From positions 1-51,406 of the forward strand of contig JAUIJD010000032.1 in the NCBI GenBank assembly GCA_030431475.1: a stretch of DNA of 51,406 nucleotides, written 5' to 3'. Below, one piece after another: positions 7,977-24,537 of this stretch. The first letter of the stretch is position 1. Every line of letters starts with the position of its first letter. Below the pieces are notes generated by a model. The model was not told the DNA's origin, searched no databases, and saw only the letters and a program-made list of their open reading frames with translations. The DNA is from Verrucomicrobiia bacterium (GTDB lineage: Bacteria; Verrucomicrobiota; Verrucomicrobiia; Verrucomicrobiales; Akkermansiaceae). A program made the translations under genes and the position numbers.

Positions 7977-9677
7977 TCAACTGGCGAGCAGGCGGGCGAA
8001 GAGGCGGCTCATGTGGCGCGGCAGATCGTCGGGCGAGGGGACGACGTCGAAGTGATCGCGGCTGAACATCTGTGGGAAGGTCTCGCAGGCCTGCTTCTCG
8101 ATGGCGAAGGCGTGGGTGCGAAGGCCGTGGAGCTTGCCGGTCTCGATCGCCTTGCGCACGTCGCGGATGCCGTAGGTGCCCTCGTAGCGGTCGTAATCGC
8201 AGGGGCGGCCATCGGTGACGAGGATGGCGATCTTTCGCGAGGCTTGCTGGTTGAGCAGCATCTCGTGGGCGTGGCGCAGCGCCGGCCCGATGCGGGTGTA
8301 GCCCTGCGGCTGGAGCGCGCCGAAGTGGAGCTTCGCCTTCTGCCACGGCTCGTGGAAATCCTTGAGCAGCTCGAAGCGGCAGGAGCGGCGCGTGTTGGAG
8401 GAGAAACCGGCGACGGCGAAGGACTCGATGGAGCCGTCGATGACCTCGCCGACGCAGTAAACGGTCTCCATGATGGCATCGAGCACGCGGATGTCGCGGA
8501 CCCATGAGTCGGTGGAGAAGCTGAGATCGAGAAGCAGCATCGCGGCGACATCGTGGAGGTCTTTCTTGCGGTCGCAGTAGATCCGCTCGTCGGGCGTCTG
8601 GCCGCTGCGCAACCGCACGCGGGAATCGACGACGGCGTCGAGGTCGAGCTCGGTGCCGACCGGTTGGCGGTGGAGTTGCAGGAACTCGGAGGTCAGATGG
8701 GCGAACTGCTTGCGCAGACGCCGGACCAGGTCGGCGTGCTTGGTTTCGACCCCCGCCAGCCACTCGGGGTGCGAGTCGCTGCGGGGATGGATCTGGAGCC
8801 GGCACCAGGCATCCTTGTAGCGCCGCTTCTTGTAGTCCCACTCGGGGTAGGGGACGCCAGCGGTCGGGATCGAGTCGTCCACCTCAAGGCCGAGACCGTC
8901 GAGGATCACGTCGCTGCGGTAGATCGAGCGCGGACGCTCGGCGGAGCGGATCACCTCGCGCATCTCGACCTCGCGGAGGGCTTCCTCGTGGTCTTCCAGT
9001 TCGTCGTCGGCGTCCTTCTTGCGGCTCAGCCCGCTGGTCTCCTCGAGGCATTCGGCCTTCTCGAAGGTGTGGATGGGCATGTCGGCGCCGTGGCCGTCGT
9101 CCTCGGGGTCCGGCAGAACTTCCACGTCGGTTTGGCCGCGGCCCTCGATCTCGGTGGTGACTTCGGAGGCGTCCGGGGCGTCGGGCGTGGCACCCTCGAT
9201 GGACTTCGGGTCGCGGGTATCGTCGGCGCGGGGCGTGCCGAGCAGCTCCCACAGGCCTTCCTCGCCGACGAGGTGTTCCTCGAGGTAGCGGGCCTTCTCG
9301 GGAAGCCGGGGAAATTCCGCGGTGAGGGATTCGACGAGCCCGCCCAGCCCCCGGCCGTCGTCCTGCCAGCGGTCGCGAATTGCAAGGGCGGCGAGGACGG
9401 TCTTCAGCTCGTAGAGCCGGAGGTTGTCCTCCGGGCTGGCGGCTGCGTGGAAGCCAGGTGGGAGGCAGACGCGGTCGCCGAGGCAGAGCACCGGGTTGTC
9501 GGTCTCGAACAGCCCGACATTCCGCCCGGAGAGCATCCGGGCCAGCAGCATCAGGGCACCGCGGTGGTCGGCGAGGCGGGCTTCCCGCTCCGCCTGCTCG
9601 CGCTGCTGCGGCTTGGTCACCCAGCGCTCGTAGAGCGACTTGAGGCCAAGGAAGGTGCTTTCTTCCCACTCGAACAT
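7977..9677 (-). CDS. norD: NorD, nitric oxide reductase activation protein (VWA domain)
   Basis: 566 residues from the ATG at 9677 (MFEWEESTFLG). The N-terminal part carries the NorD alpha-helical region (LADHRGALMLLARMLSGR). The C-terminal third is a von Willebrand factor A domain with the metal site DLSFSTDSW and the strand IAILVTDGRPCDYDRYEG, followed by IRDVRKAIETGKLHG. The middle is acidic. NorD works with the NorQ AAA+ ATPase to activate NorCB, probably during insertion of the non-heme iron. An ATG at 9725 would add 16 residues encoded by the hairpin repeat, so the later start is preferred. Confidence 0.93.
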   Translation of the reverse strand: MFEWEESTFLGLKSLYERWVTKPQQREQAEREARLADHRGALMLLARMLSGRNVGLFETDNPVLCLGDRVCLPPGFHAAASPEDNLRLYELKTVLAALAIRDRWQDDGRGLGGLVESLTAEFPRLPEKARYLEEHLVGEEGLWELLGTPRADDTRDPKSIEGATPDAPDASEVTTEIEGRGQTDVEVLPDPEDDGHGADMPIHTFEKAECLEETSGLSRKKDADDELEDHEEALREVEMREVIRSAERPRSIYRSDVILDGLGLEVDDSIPTAGVPYPEWDYKKRRYKDAWCRLQIHPRSDSHPEWLAGVETKHADLVRRLRKQFAHLTSEFLQLHRQPVGTELDLDAVVDSRVRLRSGQTPDERIYCDRKKDLHDVAAMLLLDLSFSTDSWVRDIRVLDAIMETVYCVGEVIDGSIESFAVAGFSSNTRRSCRFELLKDFHEPWQKAKLHFGALQPQGYTRIGPALRHAHEMLLNQQASRKIAILVTDGRPCDYDRYEGTYGIRDVRKAIETGKLHGLRTHAFAIEKQACETFPQMFSRDHFDVVPSPDDLPRHMSRLFARLLAS

Positions 9678-9696
9678 TGGATGGGTCGTGGTTGTT

Positions 9697-9717
9697 GTAG
9701 CGGCTTGCAAAGCCGCT
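9697..9717 (+). repeat. GTAG-headed hairpin (REP-like) between norQ and norD
   Basis: GTAGCGGCTT-GCA-AAGCCGCT: an 8-bp perfect stem (9699-9706 with 9710-9717) and a 3-nt loop, preceded by GT so that the element begins GTAG. It fills the only real gap inside the nor operon. It resembles the two hairpins at 33976-34001 and 34036-34060, which also start with GTAG. A role in mRNA processing between norQ and norD is possible. Confidence 0.6.
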
Positions 9718-9725
9718 CTCCCCAT

Positions 9726-10538
9726 TCAGATGCTGATTTCGATGAGCTGGGTAATGGCGGCGAGCGCCTCCTCCTCGTCGCTGAGCGGGCCGGCGATGGC
9801 GGTGGTGCAGGCGAGCCGCGGCGGGATGCCGGCGGCGATGAGCTTGCCGGCGGCGATCAGCAGGCGGGTCGAGACGGACTCCATCAGCGACAGCTCGGTG
9901 AGCTGGCGGATCTTGCGGCCGATGCGGACCAGTTTGCGGGCGGTCGCCTCGTCGGTACCGGACTCGGTGGCGACGATGCGCACCTCGTCGTCTTCGCCGG
10001 GGTAGTCGAAGGCGATCGCGAGGAAGCGCTGGCGGGTCGAGGGCTTGAGCTCGCGCAGGCTGCGCTGGTAGCCGGGGTTGTAGCTGACCACGAGCATGAA
10101 GTCGTCGCCCGCCCGCAGGTGCTCGCCGGTGCGGTCGAGGAAGATCTCGCGGCGGTGGTCGGTGAGCGAGTGGATGACGACGATCGCGTCGGCCCGCGCC
10201 TCGGCGATCTCGTCGAGGTAGAGCAGTGCGCCGGAGCGCACCGCGCGGGTCACGGGTCCGTCATTCCAGACCGTGTCGCCGCCGACCAGCAGGTGGCGGC
10301 CGAGCAGGTCGGTGGCGGAGGTGTCCTCGTTGCACGAGACGGTGATCAGTTCGCGGCCGAGGCGCGCGGCCATGTGCTCGACGAAGCGTGTCTTTCCGCA
10401 GCCGGTCGGCCCCTTCAGCATCAGTGGGAGCTGCGAGCGATGGGCCTTTTCGCACAGCTCCACCTCGCGACCGGTCGGCAGGTAGAAGGGCAGCGCGGTT
10501 TCGGTGGCTGCGGGATTTACAGTGACGGTGGAGCTCAT
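9726..10538 (-). CDS. norQ: NorQ, MoxR-type AAA+ ATPase for NO reductase activation
   Basis: 270 residues. Walker A GPTGCGKT is at about residues 44-51, Walker B is LLYLDEIAEA, and the sensor-1 asparagine is in VVSYNPGYQ. The C-terminal lid contains RKIRQLTELSLMESVSTR, typical of NorQ/CbbQ. These ATPases act with a VWA partner, here NorD, to activate the metalloenzyme NorCB in the cytoplasm. The start codon overlaps the norB stop by 4 bp (ATGA), and norD follows after 48 nt that hold a hairpin repeat. Confidence 0.94.
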   Translation of the reverse strand: MSSTVTVNPAATETALPFYLPTGREVELCEKAHRSQLPLMLKGPTGCGKTRFVEHMAARLGRELITVSCNEDTSATDLLGRHLLVGGDTVWNDGPVTRAVRSGALLYLDEIAEARADAIVVIHSLTDHRREIFLDRTGEHLRAGDDFMLVVSYNPGYQRSLRELKPSTRQRFLAIAFDYPGEDDEVRIVATESGTDEATARKLVRIGRKIRQLTELSLMESVSTRLLIAAGKLIAAGIPPRLACTTAIAGPLSDEEEALAAITQLIEISI

Positions 10539-11881
10539 GATTCAGCGGGGTCGGCTCCGAGCGCCTCATCGGTCGGGCGTCCGTAGCGGATGAAGTTCAG
10601 GACGAAGAGCAGGATGCCGACGGTGAACAGCGCGGCGGCGAGGACCAGGCCGAAGAAGTGCGGCTCGACCTCCTTCTGCACCTCGAGGAAGTCGATGCCG
10701 GTGCGCCTTTCGAGCACCACCTGGCTGACCCCGGCGACGGCGAAGGCGCCGGTCATCGCGACCATGCCGATGTTTGAGATCCAGAAGCCGTAATTCGAGG
10801 CGGCCGTGTCCCACAGCTTGCGGCCGGTCATCAGCGGCATCGAGTAGGCCATCATGGCGAAGACGATCATCGCGTAGGCGCCCCAGAAGGCGAGGTGGCC
10901 GTGCATCGCGGTGACCAGCGTGCCGTGGGTCCACAGGTTCACCTGCGGAAGGGTGTGGGCGAAGCCGAGGAAGCCGGCGCCGACGAAGGACATGATCGCG
11001 CAGCCCAGCGTCCAGGTCAGGGCGGTCTTGTTGGGGTGCTTGCGGCCGCCCTTGCGCGCCATGTAGAGCGCGTAGATCGCCATCCCCAGGAAAGCCAGCG
11101 GCTCAAGGGCGGAGAAGATGCCGCCGACGATCAGCCAGTAGCGCGGCACGCCGATGTAGTAGTAGTGGTGGCCGGTGCCGAGGATGCCGGAGATGAAGGT
11201 CAGGCCGACGATGATGTAGAGCCACTTCTCGACGATCTCGCGGTCGACCCCGGTGAGCTTAATCAGCAGGAAGCAGAGGATGCCGCCCATGATCAGCTCC
11301 CACACACCCTCGACCCAGAGGTGGACGACCCACCACCGGTAGAACGAGTCGAGCGTCTGGTTGTCGAAGGTGATCATGCCCGGCAGGTAGAGCAGGGCGG
11401 CCGCCAGCAGGCCCATGTAGAGAACGATGGCGGTGGTGGTGAAACGCTTCCCGTTCCACACCGTCCAGCCGATGTTGGCCAGGAAGAGCAGGACGTTGGC
11501 GACCACCAGGTAGTCGAGCGGGCGGGGGATCTCGAGGAACTTGCGGCCCTCCCAGATATTGAGGTGGTAGCAGACGATCGCCGTCACCCCGACCAGCAGG
11601 AAGGAAATGAGCTGGACGTAGGCGAGTTTCGGCCAGGCGATCTCGCGATCGGCCTCTTCGGGGATTATGTAGTGGGCCGCTCCCATGAACCCGAGCAGCA
11701 GCCACACCACCAGCAAGTTGGTGTGCACCGCGCGGGCGGTGTTGAAGGGGATGATGTCGTGGAGGACGTCGAAGCCCATGTGGGCGAAGCCCATGATGAA
11801 GCCGTAGACGATCTGCAGCACGAGCAGCAGCAGCGCCGGGGCGAAGAACCAGTAGGCGATCTTCTGTGTCTTGAATTTCAT
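10535..11881 (-). CDS. norB: NorB, cytochrome c-dependent nitric oxide reductase catalytic subunit
   Basis: 448 residues from the ATG at 11881 (MKFKTQKIAYWFF). The earlier ATG at 11932 would overlap norC. Twelve membrane helices. The metal ligands are in place: H53 in VHTNLL, H187 and E191 in VVHLWVEGVWE, H238/H239 in GTGHHYYYIG, and H327/H329 in AMHGHLAFWGAY; E260 is in FSALEPL. This is the short, cytochrome c-type form without the quinol-NOR N-terminal extension. It reduces two NO to N2O in the inner membrane, taking electrons from NorC. It follows norC by 13 nt. Confidence 0.97.
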   Translation of the reverse strand: MKFKTQKIAYWFFAPALLLLVLQIVYGFIMGFAHMGFDVLHDIIPFNTARAVHTNLLVVWLLLGFMGAAHYIIPEEADREIAWPKLAYVQLISFLLVGVTAIVCYHLNIWEGRKFLEIPRPLDYLVVANVLLFLANIGWTVWNGKRFTTTAIVLYMGLLAAALLYLPGMITFDNQTLDSFYRWWVVHLWVEGVWELIMGGILCFLLIKLTGVDREIVEKWLYIIVGLTFISGILGTGHHYYYIGVPRYWLIVGGIFSALEPLAFLGMAIYALYMARKGGRKHPNKTALTWTLGCAIMSFVGAGFLGFAHTLPQVNLWTHGTLVTAMHGHLAFWGAYAMIVFAMMAYSMPLMTGRKLWDTAASNYGFWISNIGMVAMTGAFAVAGVSQVVLERRTGIDFLEVQKEVEPHFFGLVLAAALFTVGILLFVLNFIRYGRPTDEALGADPAES

Positions 11882-11894
11882 GGTGGTGGCGGGG

Positions 11895-12593
11895 TCAGTG
11901 GTTTTCGGAAAGGCTGAGGAGGTAGTCGACAATCTCGTCGAGTTGCTCCGGAGTCATCGGGATCTGGGGCATGGCAGTGCCGGGCTTGATCTTCTGCGGA
12001 TCGGAGATCCATGCTTTCATCGCGTCGCGTTCCATCTTGGCGCCCACGAGGTCGAGGGCCGGGCCGACGTTTCCACCCTCGCCCCCAACACTGTGGCAGG
12101 CGGCGCAGATGGTGCTGAACATCTGCGGCTTGGGGACGTCGGTCTTGCCGGTGGTAACGACCGGCGCGGCGACGCGTCCGAGCGGCGGATCGGCGGGGAA
12201 CCCATTGAGGTCGACCTTTCCGCACCACTCGAAGAAGGCGATGATCTCCTCGATTTCCTCGTCGGTGAAATCGTACTGCACCATCTTGCGCTCGCCCGGA
12301 TACATCGCCTGCGGGTCCTTGAGGAAGAGTCGCATCCAGTCCTTGCCGCGGCGCTCGACGACCTTGGTCAGCTCGGGCGCGTAGTAGGCACCCTCGCCGA
12401 AAAGCGTGTGGCAGCCCATGCAGTTGTTGTCCTCCCAGATCTCCTTGCCGGCGATGACCTGCGGCGTGAGATTCCCTTCGTTGGTCAGGTGCGGGACCTG
12501 CCTGTGGGAGTCGTAGGTGAGGGCCAGAAAGGCCAGCGAGAAGACGCCGGTTCCTCCGAGGAAGAAGGCGCGTGCCTGGGATTTCGATAACAT
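11895..12593 (-). CDS. norC: NorC, cytochrome c subunit of NO reductase with a second heme domain
   Basis: 232 residues; ordinary NorC is about 150. Residues 1-140 are typical NorC: an N-terminal membrane anchor (FFLGGTGVFSLAFLALT), heme motif CMGCH at 58-62, and YDFTDEEIEEIIAFFEWCGKVDLNGFP. After a short linker a second cytochrome c domain follows, with CAACH at 163-167 and a likely methionine ligand in GTAMPQIP. The protein would therefore carry two c-type hemes in the periplasm. It donates electrons to NorB; the added domain may serve as the docking carrier. It lies 30 nt after nrdJ. Confidence 0.95.
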   Translation of the reverse strand: MLSKSQARAFFLGGTGVFSLAFLALTYDSHRQVPHLTNEGNLTPQVIAGKEIWEDNNCMGCHTLFGEGAYYAPELTKVVERRGKDWMRLFLKDPQAMYPGERKMVQYDFTDEEIEEIIAFFEWCGKVDLNGFPADPPLGRVAAPVVTTGKTDVPKPQMFSTICAACHSVGGEGGNVGPALDLVGAKMERDAMKAWISDPQKIKPGTAMPQIPMTPEQLDEIVDYLLSLSENH

Positions 12594-12623: not shown

Positions 12624-15629
<3,006 letters not shown>

Positions 15630-15744
15630 GGTGGCGTCGTGGATGGCGGTGAACGGGCGGAGTTGTAGTCGGACCAAACTAAAAAGGAAATAACTTTCTT
15701 TTAATCTTGAAAAAGCGCTATAATGGGTCGAGCGTCGCGCCGTT
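15630..15744. promoter_or_regulatory. Divergent promoter region, nrdJ-nor operon and ric
   Basis: A 115-bp gap whose middle (about 15670-15725) is markedly AT-rich compared with its surroundings. For the ric direction a TATAAT box lies at 15719-15724, about 20 bp before the start codon; no convincing -35 at the right distance is seen. Both flanking units deal with nitric oxide, so joint control is likely. I could not find a clear NsrR, NorR or FNR/DNR site. Confidence 0.5.
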
Positions 15745-16467
15745 ATGAGTCATTCAGCAGTGGTATTTTCCCCGGAGGGAACTCCGGTTCTTGAACGGAC
15801 GGTGGGCGAGTTGGTCGCCGAGCGGCCGTCGCGGTCGAAGGTGTTCCAGAAGCACGGAATCGATTTCTGTTGTCAGGGGGGGCGGACCCTGGGCGAGGCC
15901 TGCCAGCGCAAGGTGGTCGATCCGTCGGTGGTGGTTGGAGATCTTGAGGCGGAGTCCCGCGAGGTGGTCGAGGAGGCAAATCCCGCAGAGCTGCCGCCGG
16001 TGGAGCTGATCGACTACATCGTGTCGAAGCACCATGGCTATCTGCGCGAGGAACTGCCGCGCATCCACACCATGGCGCAGCGGGTGGCGCAGGTCCACGG
16101 GCCGCACACCCCCTCGCTGGTGCAGGTGCACCTGATCTACGAGGAAATGATGGTCGAGCTCGCGCATCACATGATGAAGGAGGAGGACGTCCTCTTCCCG
16201 GCGATCAAGGCGATGGCGTCGGGGGAACCGGCGGGCATCCCGCTGGACGGGGCGCTCGCGACCATGCTGGAAGAGCACGACGAGGCGGGTGCGGCGCTGG
16301 CGAAGCTGCGTGAGCTGACCCACGGCTTCACGCCACCGGACGAGGCGTGCAACACCTACCGGGCCCTGTTCGCCGGCCTCGCGGACCTGGAGGCGGACCT
16401 CCACCGACACATCCACCTCGAGAACTCGGTGCTCTTTCCCGCCGCGCGGGAGATGGCGGGAATCTGA
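15745..16467 (+). CDS. ric: Iron-sulfur cluster repair di-iron protein (RIC: ScdA/YtfE)
   Basis: 240 residues. The N-terminal ScdA_N domain has TVGELVAERPSRSKVFQKHGIDFCCQGG with its paired cysteines. The rest is a hemerythrin-like four-helix bundle rich in metal-binding histidines: SKHHGYLREELPRI, LAHHMMKEEDVLFP, LEEHDEAGAAL and HRHIHLENSVLFP. RIC proteins restore iron-sulfur clusters damaged by nitric oxide and can reduce NO themselves. Its divergent placement beside the nrdJ-nor operon fits that role. A strong hairpin follows the stop codon. Confidence 0.95.
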   Translation: MSHSAVVFSPEGTPVLERTVGELVAERPSRSKVFQKHGIDFCCQGGRTLGEACQRKVVDPSVVVGDLEAESREVVEEANPAELPPVELIDYIVSKHHGYLREELPRIHTMAQRVAQVHGPHTPSLVQVHLIYEEMMVELAHHMMKEEDVLFPAIKAMASGEPAGIPLDGALATMLEEHDEAGAALAKLRELTHGFTPPDEACNTYRALFAGLADLEADLHRHIHLENSVLFPAAREMAGI

Positions 16468-18074: not shown

Positions 18075-19340
18075 TCAGCAGCCGGTCGGCGCGGCGTCCG
18101 GATTCCCGGACCGGCTCCGCCTGAGCGATTTCCGCTTCCGTGGACAGCGGCTTTTGATGACGCCTTCCTCGTAAACCGGAAGGCGGCGTTCGCGGCGGAG
18201 CTTCCAGCTCCAGAAGGCGGCGATGACCACCCACAGCAGCGCGGCGTAGATGAAGTGGGAGATGCGGACCTTGGGGACGAAGTCGGAGGTCAGGCGGGTG
18301 GCCGCGGTGAAGAGCACGAGGGCCCACAGCGCGTGGAACCAGCGCAGCGGCGAGGCGAGTCGGTCGTGGCGTTCGTTGTGACCGAGGATCACGCGTGTGG
18401 CGGCGGCGAACATGAGCAGGCCGGCGCCACCGATGAACATCAGGTGCAGCATGCCGATGCGCAGCGGGTCGAACCAAGCGGCGAGCAGCCAGCCGCCGGC
18501 GGCGCAGGGGACGACCCAGCGCAGCGCGAGGCCGAGGCCGTTGACCTTCGTCCAGGCGACCAGCCCGGGGACCGAGCGGGCGAGGTGGAGCGTGACCACC
18601 CCGGCGCGGAGCACGTGGCCGGCACGGCCGTGACCCCACGCCTCCAGGGCGAAGCTGGCGATGAGAAGGAGTCCGGCGGCGAGAGACTCAAGGAAGGGAC
18701 GCATCCAGCCTGACGGGATGGTGAGACTCTCGTCGAAGGAATGCGGCGAGCGTTCTCCGAAGAAGCGCGGCAGCAGGTAGGGGGCGACGCCGAGGATGGG
18801 AAGCCACAAGAATCCCTGGAAGTAGAGGAGGCGGAGGACGGCGTATACGGGAGGTGAGGTTGAAATGCCGGCACCGAAGACCAGGCTGGCGGTGGCGGCG
18901 CCGCCGAGGCCGAGCACGGCGAGCGGCAGACCGGGCGGCGGCACGTCGTGCCGGGCGAAGAGAAAGCGGCCAAGCAGGCTGGCGAGCACGCCGAGCAGCC
19001 AGAGGCCGGCGAGGAGGTCGGCGGCGGCGATGCGGTTGAACCACAGCGCGATCATCATCGCCAGCGCGAGGCCGAGGTGGACAAGGAACTCCCAACGGAA
19101 GAAGGGACGGGTGCCGAGCAGGCGCGGGCCGGCGGTGCCAAGGAAGCCGACGACGAGGCTGCCACCGAAGCCGAGGACCATCCAGCGGGCGTGGGCCTCG
19201 AGCGGGTAGTATTCTATCCAGCCACGGAAGATGGCGGGCCACAGCATGACTCCGATCACCGAGGCCAGCACACCGAGCGGAAAGAACAGGCGGAAGGGCT
19301 CTTCGGTGAGCCGGGTGAGGTGGCGGGTGATGGGGTTCAT
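18075..19340 (-). CDS. nnrS: NnrS-family heme/copper membrane protein
   Basis: 421 residues from the ATG at 19340 (MNPITRHLTRLTEEPFRLFFPLG), a typical NnrS N-terminus; the upstream extension of the open frame is low-complexity. About twelve membrane helices, with EAHARWMVLGFGGSLVVGFLGTAGPRLLG, LHLMFIGGAGLLMFAAATRVILGHNERHD and a late WFHALWALVLFTAATRL. NnrS proteins are linked to denitrification and protect against nitrosative stress. The last 30 residues (RCPRKRKSLRRSRSG) are unusually basic. It is the final gene of the nirK unit, 43 nt after nirJ. Confidence 0.92.
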   Translation of the reverse strand: MNPITRHLTRLTEEPFRLFFPLGVLASVIGVMLWPAIFRGWIEYYPLEAHARWMVLGFGGSLVVGFLGTAGPRLLGTRPFFRWEFLVHLGLALAMMIALWFNRIAAADLLAGLWLLGVLASLLGRFLFARHDVPPPGLPLAVLGLGGAATASLVFGAGISTSPPVYAVLRLLYFQGFLWLPILGVAPYLLPRFFGERSPHSFDESLTIPSGWMRPFLESLAAGLLLIASFALEAWGHGRAGHVLRAGVVTLHLARSVPGLVAWTKVNGLGLALRWVVPCAAGGWLLAAWFDPLRIGMLHLMFIGGAGLLMFAAATRVILGHNERHDRLASPLRWFHALWALVLFTAATRLTSDFVPKVRISHFIYAALLWVVIAAFWSWKLRRERRLPVYEEGVIKSRCPRKRKSLRRSRSGNPDAAPTGC

Positions 19341-19383
19341 GGTGGGAGGCGGCGGGCTGCCCCGGGTTGGGGCCGCCACGGGT

Positions 19384-20598
19384 TCAGCAGGTGGCGAGTG
19401 GGGATCCCGTTTCTTCTTCGGTGAGGTAGCAGGCGGGGTCGCTGCCCCAGAGGTCGCCGTTGGCAAAGGCGGCGCGGGTGCGGAAACCGCCGCCGCAGAT
19501 GCCGAACCAGCGGCAGTCGGCACACTTTCCGCGCATCAGTGTCTGGCGGCTGCGCTCGTCGAGCAGGCCGACCGAGCGGATCTCCTCGAGCAGGGGGGCG
19601 CTCGGTGCGTGGCGGCCATCCCAGATCTCGGAGAAGGGGGTGGTCTTGACGTTGCCGAGCTGCATGTCCTGCCAGAATTGGTCGGGGTGGACGTCGCCCT
19701 GGGTGTCGATGTTGGCCACGGCGCGCCCGGAGCTGTTGGCACCGCCACCGTTCCAGTCGAGGAGGCGGCGGGCCTGGTCGAGGTTCGGATGGTCCTCGCG
19801 CTCCATGCGGTGGAGCAGGTAGGCGCCGTCGGCGGGCTGGGTCACCGTGAGGACCTCGCGGTTCTGGCCGGTGGCGTTCCAGTGCTCGACGCGGGCGATC
19901 AGGGTGTCGATCGCGCGGCGGGATTCGTCGGGGTCGAGGACCTGGAGTTCGCTGCCGCGGCCGGCCGGGACGAGGTGGTAGAAGCAGGTGCGCTGGATGT
20001 TCTGTTCCTCGATGAAGTCGAGGATGCGCTCGATGTTGGCGACGTTGTGACGGGTGAGGGTCATCCGCAGGCCGGTCTTCTGGCCGGCCCGCTCGCAATT
20101 CCGGAAGCCCCGGACGGCGGCCTTGAAGGCGCCCTTCTTTCTCCGGAACTCGTCGTGAATGGCGCCGATGCCGTCGAGCGAGATGCCGACGTAGGCGACA
20201 TTCGCCTCCTTCAGCCACGCGGCCCTTTCGGGGGTGATGAGGGTGCCGTTGGTGGAGATGGTCAGCTTGAGGCCGGCGGCGGTGGCGTGATCGACGAGGT
20301 CGAAGAAACGCGGATGGATGAGCGGTTCGCCGCCGGAGAGAAGGAGCGAGGGGATGCGGTAGGCGGCGAGGTCGGCGACGACATCCTGCATCTGCCCCCA
20401 GTCGAGCTCGCCGGGGTACTGCTGCGCCATCGAGTCGGAGTAGCAGTGGACGCAGCGCAGGTTGCAGGTGCGGGTGATGTTCCAGACGACGATGGGCTTT
20501 CGGGCGCGGGAGCTTTCGGCGGAAGTGTGAGCAGTGCCGTAGCGGAGGTCGTCGGCGGGCTGGGCGGCGCCGGTCCAGAGGCGGGTGAGGTTGATCAT
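19384..20598 (-). CDS. nirJ: NirJ-like radical SAM/SPASM protein
   Basis: 404 residues from the ATG at 20598. The radical SAM cluster motif CNLRCVHC (C45, C49, C52) sits in the NirJ-like context PIVVWNITRTCNLRCVHCYS, followed by LLLSGGEPLIHPRFF and YVGISLDGIGAIHDEFR. Later GGGANSSGRAVANIDTQGDVHPDQFW and the SPASM-like tail CADCRWFGICGGGFRTRA---DPACYLTEEE also match NirJ. NirJ removes propionate side chains during heme d1 synthesis for the cd1 nitrite reductase. No other heme d1 gene and no nirS is in the window, so the actual product is in doubt. It overlaps the preceding radical SAM gene by 4 bp. Confidence 0.85.
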   Translation of the reverse strand: MINLTRLWTGAAQPADDLRYGTAHTSAESSRARKPIVVWNITRTCNLRCVHCYSDSMAQQYPGELDWGQMQDVVADLAAYRIPSLLLSGGEPLIHPRFFDLVDHATAAGLKLTISTNGTLITPERAAWLKEANVAYVGISLDGIGAIHDEFRRKKGAFKAAVRGFRNCERAGQKTGLRMTLTRHNVANIERILDFIEEQNIQRTCFYHLVPAGRGSELQVLDPDESRRAIDTLIARVEHWNATGQNREVLTVTQPADGAYLLHRMEREDHPNLDQARRLLDWNGGGANSSGRAVANIDTQGDVHPDQFWQDMQLGNVKTTPFSEIWDGRHAPSAPLLEEIRSVGLLDERSRQTLMRGKCADCRWFGICGGGFRTRAAFANGDLWGSDPACYLTEEETGSPLATC

Positions 20599-21668
20599 GT
20601 CGTTGCGAGTGCGGGTTCGTAGGAGCAGGAGGGGTCGGCGGCGAAGGGATCGCCGGTGAGACCGTAGGCGCGGGCGCGGGAGCCGCCGCAGATCTTGCGG
20701 AACTCGCAGCGGCCGCACTTGCCGCCGAGGGCATCGGAGTCCCGGAGGCTGACGAAGAGCGGGTGGCTGCGGTAGATTTCGGCAGGGTGGCGGTGGCGGA
20801 CGTTGCCGCAGTCCATGGGGAGGAAGCCGCTGGGGCTGACCACGCCGGTGTGGGAGATGAACATGATGCCGCGGCCGTCGCGAATGCCGAGCGGCGAGCG
20901 CATGCCGGGGCGGCCCTTGGCGCCGCCCATTCCGCGCTGGGCGAGGATGCGGCGGAAATGGTGGCCCTCGGTCGTCTTGATGGCGAAGGGGGCGGTGCCG
21001 ACGAGGTCGGCCATTTCCTCGAAGATGTCTTCGAGTTGGTCGGCGGACGGCATGTCCTTCGCACCGGCGCGACCGGTCGGGACGAGGACAAAGACGCTCC
21101 ACATCGCGGGCTTGAGCTCGAACATGAGGTCGCGGAAGGCGCCGAACTCATGCAGATTGCCGGCGGTCAGGGTGGTGTTGATCTGGACCGAGAGGCCGGC
21201 GTCGTGAGCGAGGTGGACGGCGCGGATGGTGCGGTCGTAGGTGCCGGTCAGGCCGCGGAAGTCGTCGTGGGTCTCGCGGCTGGCACCGTCGAGGCTGAGC
21301 GAGATGCGGTCGATGCCGGCCTCGCGGATGGCGGTGAAATCGAAGTTCACCAGGCGAGCGGTACCGGACGGGCTGAGGCCGACTCGCATCCCGGCGGCGG
21401 TTCCGCGGCGGGCGATGTCGAGCACGTCCGGCCGCATCAGCGGGTCGCCCCCGGTGAGGATGAGCATCGGCGGAGCAAGTTCGCCCAGGCGGTCGACGAG
21501 TTCGAGAGCCTCGGATTCATCGAGTTCGTCCGGGTGGCGGCGCGGCTGGGCCTCGGCGCGACAGTGGCGGCAGGCCAGCGCGCAGGCGCGGGTGACTTCC
21601 CAGAAGACGAGGAAGGGGCGCTCGGCGAAAGGGTCGGTTCCGCTGGAAGGGTAGGTGGGCGCGACCAT
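20595..21668 (-). CDS. Radical SAM/SPASM protein, TIGR04053-like
   Basis: 357 residues. The cluster motif CALACRHC (C29, C33, C36) is in the context FLVFWEVTRACALACRHCRAE, followed by MLILTGGDPLMRPDV, RISLSLDGASRETHDDFRG and INTTLTAGNL, WSVFVLVPTGRA, IKTTEGHHFRR. The tail CGRCEFRKICGGSRARAYGLTGDP---DPSC binds an auxiliary cluster, as in AhbD/NirJ. This order matches the TIGR04053 group as I remember it. Members are related to heme-modifying radical SAM enzymes, but their reaction is not established. It starts 3 nt after the SCO stop and overlaps nirJ, so the two act in one transcript. Confidence 0.85.
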   Translation of the reverse strand: MVAPTYPSSGTDPFAERPFLVFWEVTRACALACRHCRAEAQPRRHPDELDESEALELVDRLGELAPPMLILTGGDPLMRPDVLDIARRGTAAGMRVGLSPSGTARLVNFDFTAIREAGIDRISLSLDGASRETHDDFRGLTGTYDRTIRAVHLAHDAGLSVQINTTLTAGNLHEFGAFRDLMFELKPAMWSVFVLVPTGRAGAKDMPSADQLEDIFEEMADLVGTAPFAIKTTEGHHFRRILAQRGMGGAKGRPGMRSPLGIRDGRGIMFISHTGVVSPSGFLPMDCGNVRHRHPAEIYRSHPLFVSLRDSDALGGKCGRCEFRKICGGSRARAYGLTGDPFAADPSCSYEPALATT

Positions 21669-21670
21669 GA

Positions 21671-22288
21671 TCAGGGCCGGGAGTCGGGGGCTTCTTCCGG
21701 GGCGAGCACCTTGCGAATCGAGGTCAGCATGGAGGTCGGATCGGCACCGAGACCTTCGAGGCGGTGGAGGATTTCCCCGGTGGGCGACAGCAGGGTGAGG
21801 ACGTTCGAGTGGGCGAAATCGGTGTCATTCACCTTCCGGTAGCGGATGCCGAGCGCGACGGAGAGCTCGAGGATGGCATCCTCGTCGCCACGCAGGCCGT
21901 GCCAGCGCTGGTGGTCGACCTTGTATTGATCGAGGAAATTCTTCAGCTGGGCTGGAGTGTCGCGCTCGGGGTCGATCGAGACGAATACCACGGCCAGCTT
22001 GGCGCGTTCTTCAGGCGTGAGCTTCCTCTCGATGGCGAGCAAGTCGGCGGCGAGGCGGGGGCAGGCGAACTTGCAGGTCGCGTAGCCCATGGTGATGAGG
22101 ACGGGCCGGCCTTCGAGGTCGGCGAGCTTGAGCTCCTTGCCGTGCTGGTCGGTCCAGGTCGCGTCGAACTGATGGATCGACTCGGTGGAGGCCGCGGCGG
22201 CGTCCTCGTTGTGCTCGCAGCAGGACGAGGCGTGGACGCTGGCGAGGCCAAGACCGAGGATGGCGGTGAGGAGGGCGGGAGCATTCAT
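21671..22288 (-). CDS. SCO1/SenC-family copper chaperone
   Basis: 205 residues from the ATG at 22288. An N-terminal secretion signal (MNAPALLTAILGLGLASVHAS) is followed by a cysteine pair and a thioredoxin-like domain. The copper-binding motif CKFACP (CxxxC) is in GYATCKFACPRLAADLL, and the third ligand, the conserved histidine, is in DFAHSNVLTLLSP. FVSIDPERDTPAQLKNF is typical of SCO. It acts in the periplasm, delivering copper to CuA or other sites; here NirK is the obvious client. It overlaps the nirV-like gene by 4 bp. Confidence 0.93.
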   Translation of the reverse strand: MNAPALLTAILGLGLASVHASSCCEHNEDAAAASTESIHQFDATWTDQHGKELKLADLEGRPVLITMGYATCKFACPRLAADLLAIERKLTPEERAKLAVVFVSIDPERDTPAQLKNFLDQYKVDHQRWHGLRGDEDAILELSVALGIRYRKVNDTDFAHSNVLTLLSPTGEILHRLEGLGADPTSMLTSIRKVLAPEEAPDSRP

Positions 22289-23088
22289 GGGGATGGATGG
22301 GTTTCGAGGTTGCGGGCGCCGCGGAAGCCGAGGTTGGTGACGGTGAAGTTTCCCTCGAGGCTCGAGCGGAAGGCGTAGCGCATGAAGGCGGCGTAGTTGG
22401 CGGCGTCGGTGGCGTTCACCGCACCGCCGGCGCAGAAGAGGGAGCGGTCGAGCGAGGCGTCGTTGCGGGCCGCGCCGGTGACCATCTGGTTGTTGAAGTC
22501 GCGGACCCATTCCCAGACGAGTCCGTGCATGCCGGCGACGCCGCGAAAGTCGGTCCCGGCGGTGCTCACCGAGGGCAGCACGGGTGGGTTGGGCTTGCCG
22601 TACCAGGTGAGGATGCGGGCGAGGAAGGCGGGGTCGCCGGTGGCGTTGGCACGGACGGCATCGGCCCGTGCGGCGAATTCCCACTCGTCCTCCGTGGGCA
22701 GACGTTTGTCCAAGGTCTTGAGGTAGGCGCGGGCGGCGAACCAGGAGACGTGGACGACCGGGGCGTCGGCGGGGGCGCCGGGTCCGAGTTCGAGGTCGCC
22801 GGCCCAGTGGGCGAGGTAGTTTTCCGCGGCGAACAGGCGACTGACCCGGGATCGGCGCCACTTCGGGTGCTCACGGACGAACTCGAGGAAATCGGCATTG
22901 GTGACCGGGCGACGGTCGAGTAGATAGGAGGTGACCTGCCGCGGTTGATCGCGATCGCCGAACATCGGCAGGTAGTCGCCGCCCTCGATCCTGGCCATTT
23001 CCGGCGGAACCGGAGAAGGGTCGGCGGCTTCTTCCCCCCGGACGAAGCCGGCGACACAAGCCAGGACGAGGACGACGTTTTTCATCAT
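22285..23088 (-). CDS. nirV: NirV-like protein (FGE/SUMF1 fold) beside nirK
   Basis: 267 residues with a secretion signal (MMKNVVLVLACVAGFVRG). The formylglycine-generating enzyme fold is clear: MARIEGGDYLPMFGD, PVTNADFLEFVREHP, PVVHVSWFAARAYLKTLDKRLPTEDEWEFAAR, GMHGLVWEWVRDF, LGFRGARN. The mature protein has a single cysteine (about residue 218, in LFCAGGAVN) and lacks the second cysteine of the copper site of true sulfatase-modifying enzymes, so it should not make formylglycine. NirV, of unknown function, is the FGE-like product encoded next to nirK in several proteobacteria. It lies 18 nt after nirK. Confidence 0.82.
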   Translation of the reverse strand: MMKNVVLVLACVAGFVRGEEAADPSPVPPEMARIEGGDYLPMFGDRDQPRQVTSYLLDRRPVTNADFLEFVREHPKWRRSRVSRLFAAENYLAHWAGDLELGPGAPADAPVVHVSWFAARAYLKTLDKRLPTEDEWEFAARADAVRANATGDPAFLARILTWYGKPNPPVLPSVSTAGTDFRGVAGMHGLVWEWVRDFNNQMVTGAARNDASLDRSLFCAGGAVNATDAANYAAFMRYAFRSSLEGNFTVTNLGFRGARNLETHPSP

Positions 23089-23106
23089 CGAATGAAATGG
23101 GATGAG

Positions 23107-24537
23107 CTACTTCTTGGCAGCGCGGACCTTGGCGACCTGGTCGGGAGTGACCTCGACGCCCTTGTTGTCCCACTGGGAGTAGACGTAGGTCAGCACGTTG
23201 GCGGTGGCCTCATCGCTGAGGCCTAGCTGCGGCATGATGCTGTTGAACTTGTCGCCGTTGACCGTGACCTCGCCCTGGAGGCCGTGGAGGACGACGTCGA
23301 TGGCGCGGTCGACGCCCTCGTTGAGGTAGTCGGACGCCGCCAGCGGCGGGAAGGCGGCCGGGACGCCGACGCCGTTCGGCATGTGGCACGCGGCGCAGTT
23401 GGCGCCATAGACGATCTTGCCGGCTGCGATGCGGTCCTCCTTGGTGGCGGCGGCTGCCGCGGGTTGGCTGTCGCTCGGGATCGCCTGGACCACGCCGCCT
23501 TCCGGTAGATAGACCTCATCCTTCTTCTGCCCGGAGAAGACCGCTAGGTCGGGGTCGCCGCCAGCGTTGAGGATGCCGAGGGCGCCCTTGTTGAAGGCGC
23601 GGAAAATCGAGTGATCGACGAGGATGAAGTCGCCGTTGGTTTCCAGCTTGAACTCGCAGATCGTCGCGCCACCGGCCGGGACGAGGGTGGTCTGGACGTT
23701 CTCCTGAAAGCGACTTCCCGCCTCGGTGTAGACGCGGTCGAAGATCTCACCGATCACGTGGAAGGAGGACACGAGGTTGGGGCCCCCGTTACCGACGAAC
23801 AAGCGGACGGTTTCACCCTTTGAAGCCTGCAGGGCGTTCTCTCCGGTCATTGAGCCGACCGCACCGTTGAAGACCACGTAGTCGGGGTTCTCCGCGAGTG
23901 CCTTCTCCATGTTGAAGCCTTGAAGTCCGGGTTCGCCGTACTTGCCGGTCGTGTAGAAGTCGCCTTGGACGACGTAGTATTCCCTGTCCACTGGTGGCAG
24001 GCCTTCCTTCGGCTCGACGAGGATCAGACCGTACATCCCGTTGGCGATATGCATGCCCACCGGGGCGGTGGCGCAGTGGTAGATGTAGAGTCCGGGATTG
24101 ACCGCCTTGAAGCTGAAGTTGGTTTTGTGCCCCGGCGCGGTGAAGGTCGCCTTGGCGCCGCCGCCGGGGCCGGTCACGGCGTGGAGGTCGATGTTGTGGG
24201 GCATTTTGCTGGACGGGTGGTTCATCAGGGTGAAGTCCACCTCGTCGTTCTGGCGCACGCGGATGAACTTGCCGGGCACGCTCCCGCCGAAGGTCCAGAA
24301 GGTATAGTCGACGCCGTCGGCCATACGCTTGACGACCTCGGTGACCTCGAGTTCGACCGTCACGCGGGTCGGGTGCTTCCGGGTTATCGGAGGCGGGACG
24401 TTCGGTGCGTCCGTGAGGACGGCGACCTCCTCGCCCTGAAGGGGCAGGTCTTCGGTCTCGGAAGGGGCGACGGTTTGGCCCGGACAGGCAAGGGAGACGA
24501 AAGCAAGGGTGGTGATGAAGGTCGGCAGAAGTTTCAT
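23107..24537 (-). CDS. nirK: Copper nitrite reductase NirK with C-terminal cytochrome c domain
   Basis: 476 residues. A secretion signal comes first (possible lipobox near residue 18, SLAC). Two cupredoxin domains follow with all ligands: type 1 copper H114, C155, H163, M168 (PHNIDLHAV, YHCATAPVGMHIANGM); type 2 copper H119, H154, H309; catalytic D117 and H260 (SSFHVIGEIFD). After an alanine-rich linker (350-366) comes a class I cytochrome c domain with CAACH at 381-385 and a methionine near LNGDKFNSIMPQLG-type sequence. It reduces nitrite to NO in the periplasm; the tethered heme probably feeds electrons. It is the first gene of the nirK-nnrS unit. Confidence 0.96.
   Translation of the reverse strand: MKLLPTFITTLAFVSLACPGQTVAPSETEDLPLQGEEVAVLTDAPNVPPPITRKHPTRVTVELEVTEVVKRMADGVDYTFWTFGGSVPGKFIRVRQNDEVDFTLMNHPSSKMPHNIDLHAVTGPGGGAKATFTAPGHKTNFSFKAVNPGLYIYHCATAPVGMHIANGMYGLILVEPKEGLPPVDREYYVVQGDFYTTGKYGEPGLQGFNMEKALAENPDYVVFNGAVGSMTGENALQASKGETVRLFVGNGGPNLVSSFHVIGEIFDRVYTEAGSRFQENVQTTLVPAGGATICEFKLETNGDFILVDHSIFRAFNKGALGILNAGGDPDLAVFSGQKKDEVYLPEGGVVQAIPSDSQPAAAAATKEDRIAAGKIVYGANCAACHMPNGVGVPAAFPPLAASDYLNEGVDRAIDVVLHGLQGEVTVNGDKFNSIMPQLGLSDEATANVLTYVYSQWDNKGVEVTPDQVAKVRAAKK

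What the first reader, a model, noticed from the sequence alone, without database searches (positions are those of the whole stretch)
18075..24537. Two heme-type radical SAM enzymes built into a copper nitrite reductase operon
nirK, nirV-like, SCO, a TIGR04053-like radical SAM gene, a NirJ-like radical SAM gene and nnrS form one tight unit: most joints are ATGA overlaps or gaps under 50 nt. NirJ is known for heme d1, the cofactor of the cd1 nitrite reductase NirS, yet the nitrite reductase here is the copper type and no other heme d1 gene (nirE, nirF, nirD-like) is present. Either the pair makes a different porphyrin, matures NirK or NnrS, or the heme d1 genes lie elsewhere. This is the best candidate in the window for an undescribed module: copper NIR plus a paired radical SAM maturation step.
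Basis: partly seen in the sequence, partly recalled or inferred. Interest (0 to 1): 0.75.

Follow-up and report, generated by a model that had tools for sequence, protein, structure and literature searches.

The report
Anaerobic heme-making enzymes in denitrification operon
Two iron-sulfur enzymes that sit in a nitrite-reductase operon of a Verrucomicrobial bacterium look like the last two steps of the oxygen-free route to ordinary heme, so they more probably supply heme for denitrification than make a new cofactor or mature the copper enzyme.

Summary
The six-gene unit is real (nirK–nirV–SCO–TIGR04053–NirJ/AhbC-like–nnrS, 24537→18075, minus strand). It does not look like heme d1: the genome shows no cytochrome-d1-fold protein (so no NirS/NirF), HemE or HemH. 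It has CobA, a fused siroheme decarboxylase over the AhbA and AhbB cut-offs, a peroxide-dependent heme synthase (ChdC), and a second copy of the pair with nnrS but no nirK.

The first enzyme passes TIGR04053 and has the cysteine/Glu/Ser pattern published for "AuxII-only" AhbD heme synthases. The second resembles AhbC more than NirJ but passes no curated cut-off. In Haloferax volcanii ahbD lies near nirK; its deletion harms only anaerobic growth, which added heme restores (well for DMSO respiration, partly for denitrification). A Haloferax larsenii protein in a matching neighbourhood passes TIGR04053.

Best reading: an anaerobic AhbC/AhbD-type heme b branch in a denitrification island, the analogue of hemN in rhizobial nirK–nnrS clusters; a bacterial variant of something seen in haloarchaea. 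Only 3 of 33 Verrucomicrobial TIGR04053 places examined are within 5 kb of nirK, so this is no general module. Enzyme activities are untested. Side result: 47 of 50 Verrucomicrobiales genomes, a chosen sample, have no HemE or HemH over cut-off.

The parts
23107..24537 (-). nirK: copper nitrite reductase with C-terminal cytochrome c domain (476 aa)
   Evidence: TIGR02376 360 bits over cut-off 296; Cytochrom_C residues 370-455
22285..23088 (-). nirV-like FGE-sulfatase-domain protein (267 aa)
   Evidence: PF03781 E 2.7e-27; same nirK-FGE-SCO order on Azoarcus pAZKH
21671..22288 (-). SCO1/SenC copper chaperone-type protein
   Evidence: PF02630 E 7.3e-24
20595..21668 (-). TIGR04053 radical SAM/SPASM protein; proposed AhbD-type (AuxII-only) coproheme decarboxylase / heme b synthase
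   Evidence: TIGR04053 426 bits over cut-off 395; AhbD TIGR04545 316 bits, below cut-off 500. C29/C33/C36 radical SAM cluster; C318/C321/C327/C348 AuxII; E234, S280, S330 where M. barkeri-type AhbD has cysteine (rule from PMC10452713)
19384..20598 (-). AhbC/NirJ1-like radical SAM protein; proposed didecarboxysiroheme deacetylase
   Evidence: NirJ1 430, AhbC 402, NirJ 361 bits, all below cut-off; 11 of 19 AhbC/NirJ-discriminating columns are AhbC-type, 3 NirJ-type, 5 neither
18075..19340 (-). nnrS: NnrS family membrane protein
   Evidence: PF05940 E 3.6e-25
7977..12593 (-). Context: probable norC (11895-12593), norB (10535-11932), norQ (9726-10538), norD (7977-9725), a cytochrome-c-type NO reductase operon and so a consumer of heme b and c
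   Evidence: Cytochrom_C, COX1, AAA_5 + CbbQ/NirQ/NorQ C-terminal, VWA. No NOR-specific model passed, and the norC-like protein passes the SoxX model TIGR04485 (67 bits, cut-off 61); the nor naming rests on the gene set, its order and recalled NorC/NorB sequence traits
15745..16467 (+). Context: RIC/ScdA iron-sulfur cluster repair protein
   Evidence: TIGR03652 254 bits over cut-off 205

Best explanation
The two radical SAM enzymes are the terminal half of the siroheme-dependent (Ahb) route to heme b, duplicated and placed inside a denitrification operon so that heme can be made without oxygen when nitrite and NO respiration run. Proposed steps: uroporphyrinogen III -> (CobA and siroheme-forming enzymes, the latter not searched for) siroheme -> (fused AhbA/AhbB on another contig) 12,18-didecarboxysiroheme -> (AhbC-like, 20598-19384) iron-coproporphyrin III -> (TIGR04053 = AuxII-only AhbD type, 21668-20595) heme b. 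In air the last step would be done by ChdC, which is present elsewhere in the genome and uses peroxide. The heme would serve the cytochrome c part of NirK, the probable NorB/NorC in the same window, NnrS and respiratory cytochromes. Shown here: gene content, operon structure, cofactor-ligand patterns, presence and absence in the assembled genome. Inferred: both reactions, and co-regulation with nirK.
For: (1) Own genome: no Cytochrom_D1 (the model does detect three such proteins in the relative G007), no HemE, no HemH; ChdC passing NF008913 'hydrogen peroxide-dependent heme synthase'; a 346-aa protein passing both AhbA (252 bits, cut-off 140) and AhbB (238, cut-off 125); CobA. (2) Ligand pattern: PMC10452713 reports that AhbDs of non-methanogenic archaea (one exception) keep CX3CX2C and CX2CX5CX20-38C but have Glu and Ser in place of C223/C274/C324. 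The window protein has this pattern (E234, S280, S330), as do 73 of 73 TIGR04053 rows at least 50% identical to it, repeat copies of some genes included. (3) Genetics: in H. volcanii ahbD (HVO_2144) lies near nirK and norB; its deletion harms only anaerobic growth; protoheme restored DMSO-respiring growth and, with DMSO added, part of denitrifying growth; PitA/ChdC is needed aerobically (PMC5746218 passages; also PMC8305020 passages). H. volcanii is one of 3 of 14 control genomes that ring at TIGR04053 E<=1e-70, and the Haloferax larsenii protein beside halocyanin and norB-type genes passes TIGR04053 at 502 bits. (4) Akkermansia: 0 of 7 tested genomes have HemE over cut-off, HemH or ChdC, and 6 of the 7 have the pair. 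(5) Precedent for linkage: in a Desulfobacterales locus AhbC (731 bits) and AhbD (554), both over cut-off, flank a hemB (PF00490) gene. (6) Analogy: a Sinorhizobium nirK-nirV-nnrS-nor cluster carries hemN, and hemN is reported in the NnrR regulon (PMC6710368 passages).
Against: Neither protein passes the AhbC (650) or AhbD (500) cut-off. The AhbC-like clade carries its own signatures (TVTQPADG, a two-residue insertion) unlike both AhbC and NirJ, and a grouping with NirJ is not rejected (p-AU 0.067). In more distant TIGR04053 rows the Glu is Ala in 3 of 12. In the 7 Akkermansia genomes, where the pair would be the only route, the siroheme-decarboxylase domain is found only weakly (E 4e-8 to 3e-4 in six, none in G070), so the step before the pair is unsure there. 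An Armatimonadetes locus has AhbC-like, AhbD-like and TIGR04053 genes side by side, so TIGR04053 need not be a mere AhbD substitute. In haloarchaea TIGR04053 also lies near genes annotated as radical-SAM-linked peptides. Methanosarcina acetivorans also rings in the strict TIGR04053 control, so that ring alone does not prove membership for H. volcanii. No FNR-type box was found upstream of the window's nirK. 17 of 39 sampled nirK-negative genomes also have TIGR04053. PMC10452713 states that no AuxII-only enzyme has been assayed.
Confidence: 0.79

Rival explanations
1. The pair makes a distinct, non-heme-b tetrapyrrole for NnrS or another partner. Both proteins branched off AhbC/AhbD and changed product.
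For: Both are below the AhbC and AhbD cut-offs; clade-specific signatures in the AhbC-like protein; nnrS within 5 kb of TIGR04053 at 13 of 33 places; AhbC-like, AhbD-like and TIGR04053 together in one Armatimonadetes locus.
Against: No nnrS was detected within 5 kb of the pair in the six Akkermansia loci L015-L020, a genus in which no other terminal heme route was found; the H. volcanii ahbD phenotype is cured, well or partly, by ordinary protoheme.
Confidence: 0.09
2. The NirJ-like protein is a NirJ and the locus is a remnant or part of a heme d1 pathway.
For: NirJ score 361 bits, close to that of the NirJ-type protein in G007's d1 cluster (369 bits); union with NirJ not rejected at 5% (p-AU 0.067); a siroheme decarboxylase exists elsewhere in the genome.
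Against: No Cytochrom_D1 match in the genome, whereas G007 has three; NirJ references form their own clade (99/96); Arg3, proposed in a computed NirJ model to bind substrate (PMC12505453 discussion), is Asn here, and only 3 of 19 discriminating columns are NirJ-type.
Confidence: 0.04
3. One or both enzymes modify a peptide or protein (RiPP-like, or NirK/NirV maturation).
For: SPASM enzymes often modify peptides (recalled); haloarchaeal loci carry genes annotated 'rSAM-partnered candidate RiPP' and 'CGCGG family rSAM-modified RiPP'.
Against: The five gene joints are overlaps or gaps of at most 43 nt, so no peptide gene fits between the operon genes; the pair occurs without nirK or nirV; Azoarcus has nirK-FGE-SCO with no radical SAM pair detected within 10 kb; sequence and genetics point to heme.
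Confidence: 0.05

Closest known systems
Haloferax volcanii ahbD (HVO_2144) near nirK (HVO_2141) and norB (HVO_2147), PMC5746218
   Same: nirK-linked AhbD-type radical SAM gene; ChdC elsewhere for aerobic growth; uroD and cpfC reported missing there too
   Different: Archaeon; its AhbC (HVO_1121) and nirDL/GH-type genes are elsewhere; here the AhbC-like gene is in the operon, with nirV, SCO and nnrS. That HVO_2144 is a TIGR04053 protein is inferred, not scored
Siroheme-dependent (Ahb) heme operon of a sulfate-reducer-type genome (AhbC-HemB-AhbD; Desulfobacterales L030)
   Same: AhbC- and AhbD-type genes linked, radical SAM chemistry
   Different: L030 AhbD has the full SPASM cysteines (two auxiliary clusters) and both proteins pass curated cut-offs; no nirK or nnrS detected in the locus
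hemN in rhizobial nirK-nirV-nnrS-nor clusters (L134; NnrR regulon, PMC6710368)
   Same: Oxygen-independent heme step supplied within a copper-type denitrification cluster near nnrS
   Different: HemN is an oxygen-independent coproporphyrinogen III oxidase of another heme route
NirJ / heme d1 operons (e.g. Pseudomonas mandelii plasmid L138; Verrucomicrobiales G007 L093)
   Same: AhbC-like protein is a relative of NirJ; same presumed substrate (didecarboxysiroheme)
   Different: No nirS, nirF or d1-fold protein here; more discriminating columns AhbC-like than NirJ-like
Azoarcus sp. KH32C pAZKH nirK-FGE-SCO (L136)
   Same: 62% identical NirK with cytochrome domain followed by nirV-like and SCO
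   Different: No radical SAM pair and no nnrS detected in the 10 kb on either side

Membership tests
TIGR04053 (NCBIfam equivalog, function unnamed) | Score over curated cut-off 395 | tested here: met
   426.2 bits; own second copy 430.5
AhbD heme b synthase (TIGR04545) | Score over curated cut-off 500 | tested here: not met
   315.5 bits; H. larsenii TIGR04053 protein 343, Desulfobacterales AhbD 554
AhbD, AuxII-only subgroup of PMC10452713 | CX3CX2C + CX2CX5CX20-38C, with Glu/Ser/Ser at the C223/C274/C324 positions | tested here: met
   C29/33/36, C318/321/327/348, E234/S280/S330; no sequence from the paper's own set was in the alignment
AhbD | Decarboxylates Fe-coproporphyrin III to heme b | not testable with these tools
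   needs assay; stated as untested for the AuxII-only subgroup
AhbC (TIGR04546) | Score over curated cut-off 650 | tested here: not met
   402.1 bits
AhbC | AhbC-type rather than NirJ-type residues at discriminating columns | tested here: inconclusive
   11 of 19 AhbC, 3 NirJ, 5 neither, against 4 AhbC-type references (of two scored, one over and one under the AhbC cut-off) and 3 NirJ-type references
AhbC | Siroheme decarboxylase (AhbA/B) in the same genome | tested here: met
   L090 5632-6672 passes NF040708 and NF040707
NirJ (TIGR04051) / heme d1 pathway | Score over cut-off 515.45 | tested here: not met
   361.4 bits; G007's NirJ-type protein also fails, 369.2
NirJ / heme d1 pathway | NirS or NirF (d1-fold) in the genome | tested here: not met
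   PF02239 0 matches; genome 95.3% complete
NirJ / heme d1 pathway | Nests inside the NirJ clade | tested here: inconclusive
   Outside a 99/96 NirJ clade, but union with it not rejected, p-AU 0.067
Copper nitrite reductase (TIGR02376) | Score over cut-off 296.3 | tested here: met
   360.1 bits
NnrS (PF05940) | Score over gathering cut-off 28 | tested here: met
   89.6 bits

The most novel reading that the evidence does not exclude
TIGR04053 and its AhbC-like partners (this Verrucomicrobial clade; TIGR04347 in haloarchaea) are a separate two-enzyme branch that turns didecarboxysiroheme or coproheme into a modified heme used by NnrS or other NO-handling proteins: a third radical-SAM tetrapyrrole branch beside heme d1 and heme b.
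Probability: 0.07. Interest if true: 0.85.

Novelty: new variant of a known kind. Interest (0 to 1): 0.5.

Why it matters
It proposes a function for an unnamed curated family: TIGR04053 matches the AuxII-only AhbD pattern that specialists marked as untested, found here in bacterial denitrifiers and in Akkermansia. It suggests that denitrification operons recruit the siroheme heme route as rhizobia recruit hemN, and that many Verrucomicrobiales, Akkermansia included, make heme without HemE or HemH. The steps can be tested with purified proteins or by complementing the published H. volcanii ahbD deletion.

Tried and rejected
Heme d1: disfavoured on gene content (contrast G007) and residues; the phylogenetic rejection alone is only marginal (p-AU 0.067).

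NirK maturation and a RiPP: no support in the operon (see rivals).

General nirK+pair module: rejected; nirK within 5 kb of TIGR04053 at 3 of 33 Verrucomicrobial places (window, L010, L114). A partial TIGR04053 start beside a NirK-like fragment at a contig end (L119) was not counted. Neighbours were detected by tblastn with window proteins (E<=1e-10, at least 45% of the query), so divergent ones can be missed. nirK and TIGR04053 (both over cut-off) co-occur in 10 of 11 nirK-positive genomes against 17 of 39 nirK-negative ones (Fisher p 0.006), but I chose the 50 genomes with TIGR04053-positive ones over-represented, and they are related, so this is weak. 139 of the 189 genomes were not carried into the later searches.

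FNR/NNR box upstream of nirK: none in the window beyond chance (p about 0.6); near-matches upstream of nirK in some other loci (L109/L121, L112, Azoarcus L136; motif recalled; simple letter shuffles).

Structure prediction and fold search were not run: the cysteine pattern already answered the question, and their descriptions promise no distances. PDB sequence searches found only remote radical SAM relatives. Viral contigs, phages and E. coli genomes were not searched.

Literature (search listings unless said otherwise): 'TIGR04053' 0 papers; AhbC+AhbD+Verrucomicrob- 0; nirJ+nirK+radical SAM 1; ahbD+nirK 2 (the second, PMC11237513, seen only in the listing); siroheme-dependent + heme biosynthesis + denitrif- + AhbC, at least 3 of 4: 15; Akkermansia + heme biosynthesis + siroheme + AhbD, at least 3 of 4: 19, 15 listed, none of the 15 naming Akkermansia; Akkermansia muciniphila + heme biosynthesis + cytochrome bd + porphyrin, at least 3 of 4: 35, 10 listed; hemN+nirK+nnrS 4; Verrucomicrobi- + ferrochelatase + heme biosynthesis 4, of which PMC8529089 was read in passages: four Verrucomicrobial ferrochelatases, in Opitutaceae and Puniceicoccaceae. 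Read in passages: PMC10452713 (plus section 3.2), PMC12505453 (plus discussion), PMC5746218 (plus conclusions), PMC8305020, PMC6710368. No paper was read whole. Only open PMC papers are held.

Full report
WHAT IS THERE. The window is contig C62 of a 4.73 Mb, 95.3% complete genome. Its genus includes Haloferula rosea and H. luteola: the same-genus genomes G109 and G186 carry TIGR04053 proteins identical to those named records. On the minus strand lie nirK (24537-23107), a nirV-like FGE-domain gene, SCO, a TIGR04053 radical SAM gene (21668-20595), a NirJ/AhbC-like radical SAM gene (20598-19384) and nnrS (19340-18075). Of the five joints two are ATGA overlaps and three are gaps of 18, 2 and 43 nt. 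NirK carries a C-terminal cytochrome c domain. Further along the same strand is a set that reads as norC-norB-norQ-norD (12593-7977). No NOR-specific model passed, and the norC-like protein passes the SoxX model (67 bits, cut-off 61), so that naming rests on gene set, order and recalled sequence traits. RIC, an iron-sulfur repair protein, lies at 15745-16467 on the plus strand. The region reads as a nitrite-to-N2O island.

THE GENOME. No cytochrome-d1-fold protein, no ferrochelatase and no uroporphyrinogen decarboxylase were found. As a check on the first, the same Pfam model finds three d1-fold proteins in the nirS-type cluster of the relative G007. Present are CobA, a 346-aa fused protein on C39 over the AhbA and AhbB cut-offs, a second, divergent double-domain relative on C67 beside a truncated-hemoglobin gene (AhbB 90 bits, below cut-off 125), and a peroxide-dependent heme synthase on C100. 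A second TIGR04053 + AhbC-like + nnrS set sits on C6 without nirK; the paralogues are 79%, 77% and 59% identical.

THE TIGR04053 PROTEIN. It scores 426 bits with TIGR04053 and 316 with AhbD (cut-off 500). PMC10452713 (passages and section 3.2) reports that AhbDs from non-methanogenic archaea, with one exception, keep the radical SAM and AuxII cysteines but replace three AuxI cysteines (C223, C274, C324 in M. barkeri) by conserved Glu and Ser, while the C256 position is not conserved, and that none of this subgroup has been assayed. I aligned the window protein and 11 other TIGR04053 rows with five AhbD-type rows: four with the full SPASM set, and the Armatimonadetes row, which has Asp at C223 and scores below the AhbD cut-off. 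The window protein has E234, S280 and S330 in those columns and all seven other cysteines. Over TIGR04053 rows at least 50% identical to it the pattern holds in 73 of 73, repeat copies of some genes included. Over the 12 TIGR04053 rows the two serines are invariant and the Glu column holds Ala in 3.

THE AhbC-LIKE PROTEIN. It shares the N-terminal M-I-x-[IL]-[ST]-[KR]-L...LRY stretch with the AhbC-type and NirJ1-type rows. Of 19 columns that separate 4 AhbC-type from 3 NirJ-type references, it and three close relatives are AhbC-like at 11, NirJ-like at 3 and neither at 5. Identity is 43-47% to AhbC-type rows, 47% to NirJ1, 41% to TIGR04347 and 33-40% to NirJ. In trees (82 rows quick; 32 rows careful, from which I left out eight AhbC/NirJ-like rows that were long branches or close relatives of kept rows) the Verrucomicrobial clade is fully supported and lies outside the NirJ clade. 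Its nearest neighbour is unresolved, and joining it with NirJ is not rejected (p-AU 0.067). Two genomes of another Verrucomicrobial family (f4) carry an unlinked gene with motifs intermediate towards AhbC; the one I scored has AhbC 500, NirJ1 494 and NirJ 409 bits, which fits descent from AhbC.

DISTRIBUTION. In 189 genomes of the order, 76 have a TIGR04053-model match at E<=1e-20 and 60 are over the cut-off. I carried 50 of the 189 into later searches, rich in positives. Over the curated cut-offs, 47 of 50 have neither HemE nor HemH; weak sub-cut-off matches occur in six further genomes for HemE and one for HemH. The other 3 have both and lack ChdC. Of the 47, 40 have ChdC and 7 do not. The 7 belong to genus g2, identified as Akkermansia because five g2 genomes carry TIGR04053 proteins identical to named Akkermansia or Akkermansiaceae records. 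Of those 7, 6 have TIGR04053 with the AhbC-like gene beside it. Where ChdC is missing the pair is the only terminal heme route seen, but the siroheme-decarboxylase domain is only weakly found there (E 4e-8 to 3e-4, none in G070). Of 33 distinct Verrucomicrobial TIGR04053 places with flanks (two with only 1.5 kb on one side), 22 have the AhbC-like gene adjacent, 13 have nnrS within 5 kb and 3 have nirK within 5 kb.

ELSEWHERE. Haloarchaeal plasmids carry TIGR04053 near nirK (Halobellus about 0.8 kb, Halobaculum marinum about 6.7 kb), as does the Halorutilus contig L025 (about 3.6 kb). Haloferax larsenii carries it beside halocyanin and a gene annotated cbb3-type oxidase subunit I that I read as norB. 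Thermus JL-18 carries it next to a gene annotated nitrite reductase. In Deinococcus ficus it is near siroheme genes. An Armatimonadetes locus holds AhbC-like, AhbD-like (both below cut-off) and TIGR04053 (over cut-off) genes side by side.

GENETIC PRECEDENT. PMC5746218 (passages and conclusions) reports that in Haloferax volcanii ahbD (HVO_2144) lies near nirK and norB. Its deletion harms only anaerobic growth. Protoheme restored DMSO-respiring growth; denitrifying growth was only partly restored, and only when DMSO was added with the heme. PitA/ChdC is needed aerobically. That HVO_2144 is a TIGR04053 protein is inferred: H. volcanii rings in the TIGR04053 control at E<=1e-70 (so does Methanosarcina acetivorans, and the call does not say which two of the three are over the cut-off), and the H. 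larsenii protein in the matching neighbourhood scores 502 bits.

MECHANISM. I therefore read the pair as the oxygen-free end of the siroheme route to heme b, next to the proteins that need heme during denitrification. Rhizobial clusters do the same job with hemN: one Sinorhizobium plasmid has nirK-nirV, nnrS, hemN and nor genes together, and hemN is reported under NnrR (PMC6710368 passages). Gene content, order and ligand patterns are shown; the two reactions and the co-regulation are inferred. No FNR-type site was seen upstream of this nirK.

NOVELTY. The kind is known (ahbD near nirK in haloarchaea; AhbC/AhbD in sulfate reducers). New here, as far as the searches in Tried and rejected reach, are the bacterial operon that holds both enzymes with nirK and nnrS, the match of TIGR04053 with the AuxII-only AhbD pattern, and the inferred siroheme-type heme synthesis in Verrucomicrobiales and Akkermansia. 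The strongest open point is biochemical: no AuxII-only enzyme has been assayed, and the AhbC-like clade passes no curated cut-off.

Noticed in passing
Genomes; own copy L091 6814-7917 (G000 C67): Of 50 chosen Verrucomicrobiales genomes 47 have no HemE or HemH over cut-off; 18 of these also have no TIGR04053-model match (E<=1e-20, which would catch AhbC), yet 17 of the 18 have ChdC and the divergent double-domain siroheme-decarboxylase-like protein. What makes coproheme there is unknown: a possible missing aerobic AhbC analogue.
   Followed up: partly
L050 8685-12477 (G000 C6): Second TIGR04053 + AhbC-like + nnrS set in the same genome, downstream of an elongation factor Ts gene (PF00889) and without nirK.
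   Followed up: yes
Window 7977-12593, minus strand: norCBQD-type cluster; the norC-like protein has two cytochrome c stretches and passes a SoxX model.
   Followed up: partly
Window 12624-15677, minus strand: Class II (B12-dependent) ribonucleotide reductase between the nor cluster and the nirK operon.
   Followed up: no
L093 (genome G007, C19): A Verrucomicrobiales genome with a heme d1-type cluster (three Cytochrom_D1 proteins, a NirJ-type protein, a siroheme decarboxylase, cobA) and classical HemE+HemH but no ChdC: a natural contrast within the order.
   Followed up: partly
L024 7608-11125: Armatimonadetes locus with AhbC-like, AhbD-like and TIGR04053 genes in tandem after genes with several CxxCH motifs (by eye): tests whether TIGR04053 and AhbD differ in function.
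   Followed up: partly
L054 (Campylobacter jejuni 2.9 kb plasmid record): A TIGR04053 gene close to the Deinococcus one in the tree, on a tiny circular record with a molybdenum cofactor gene; origin unclear.
   Followed up: no
L119 7400-8186 (G009 C118): A 109-aa ORF 81% identical to part of the window NirK (no Pfam match), directly before a TIGR04053 start at a contig end; G009 has a nirK elsewhere.
   Followed up: partly
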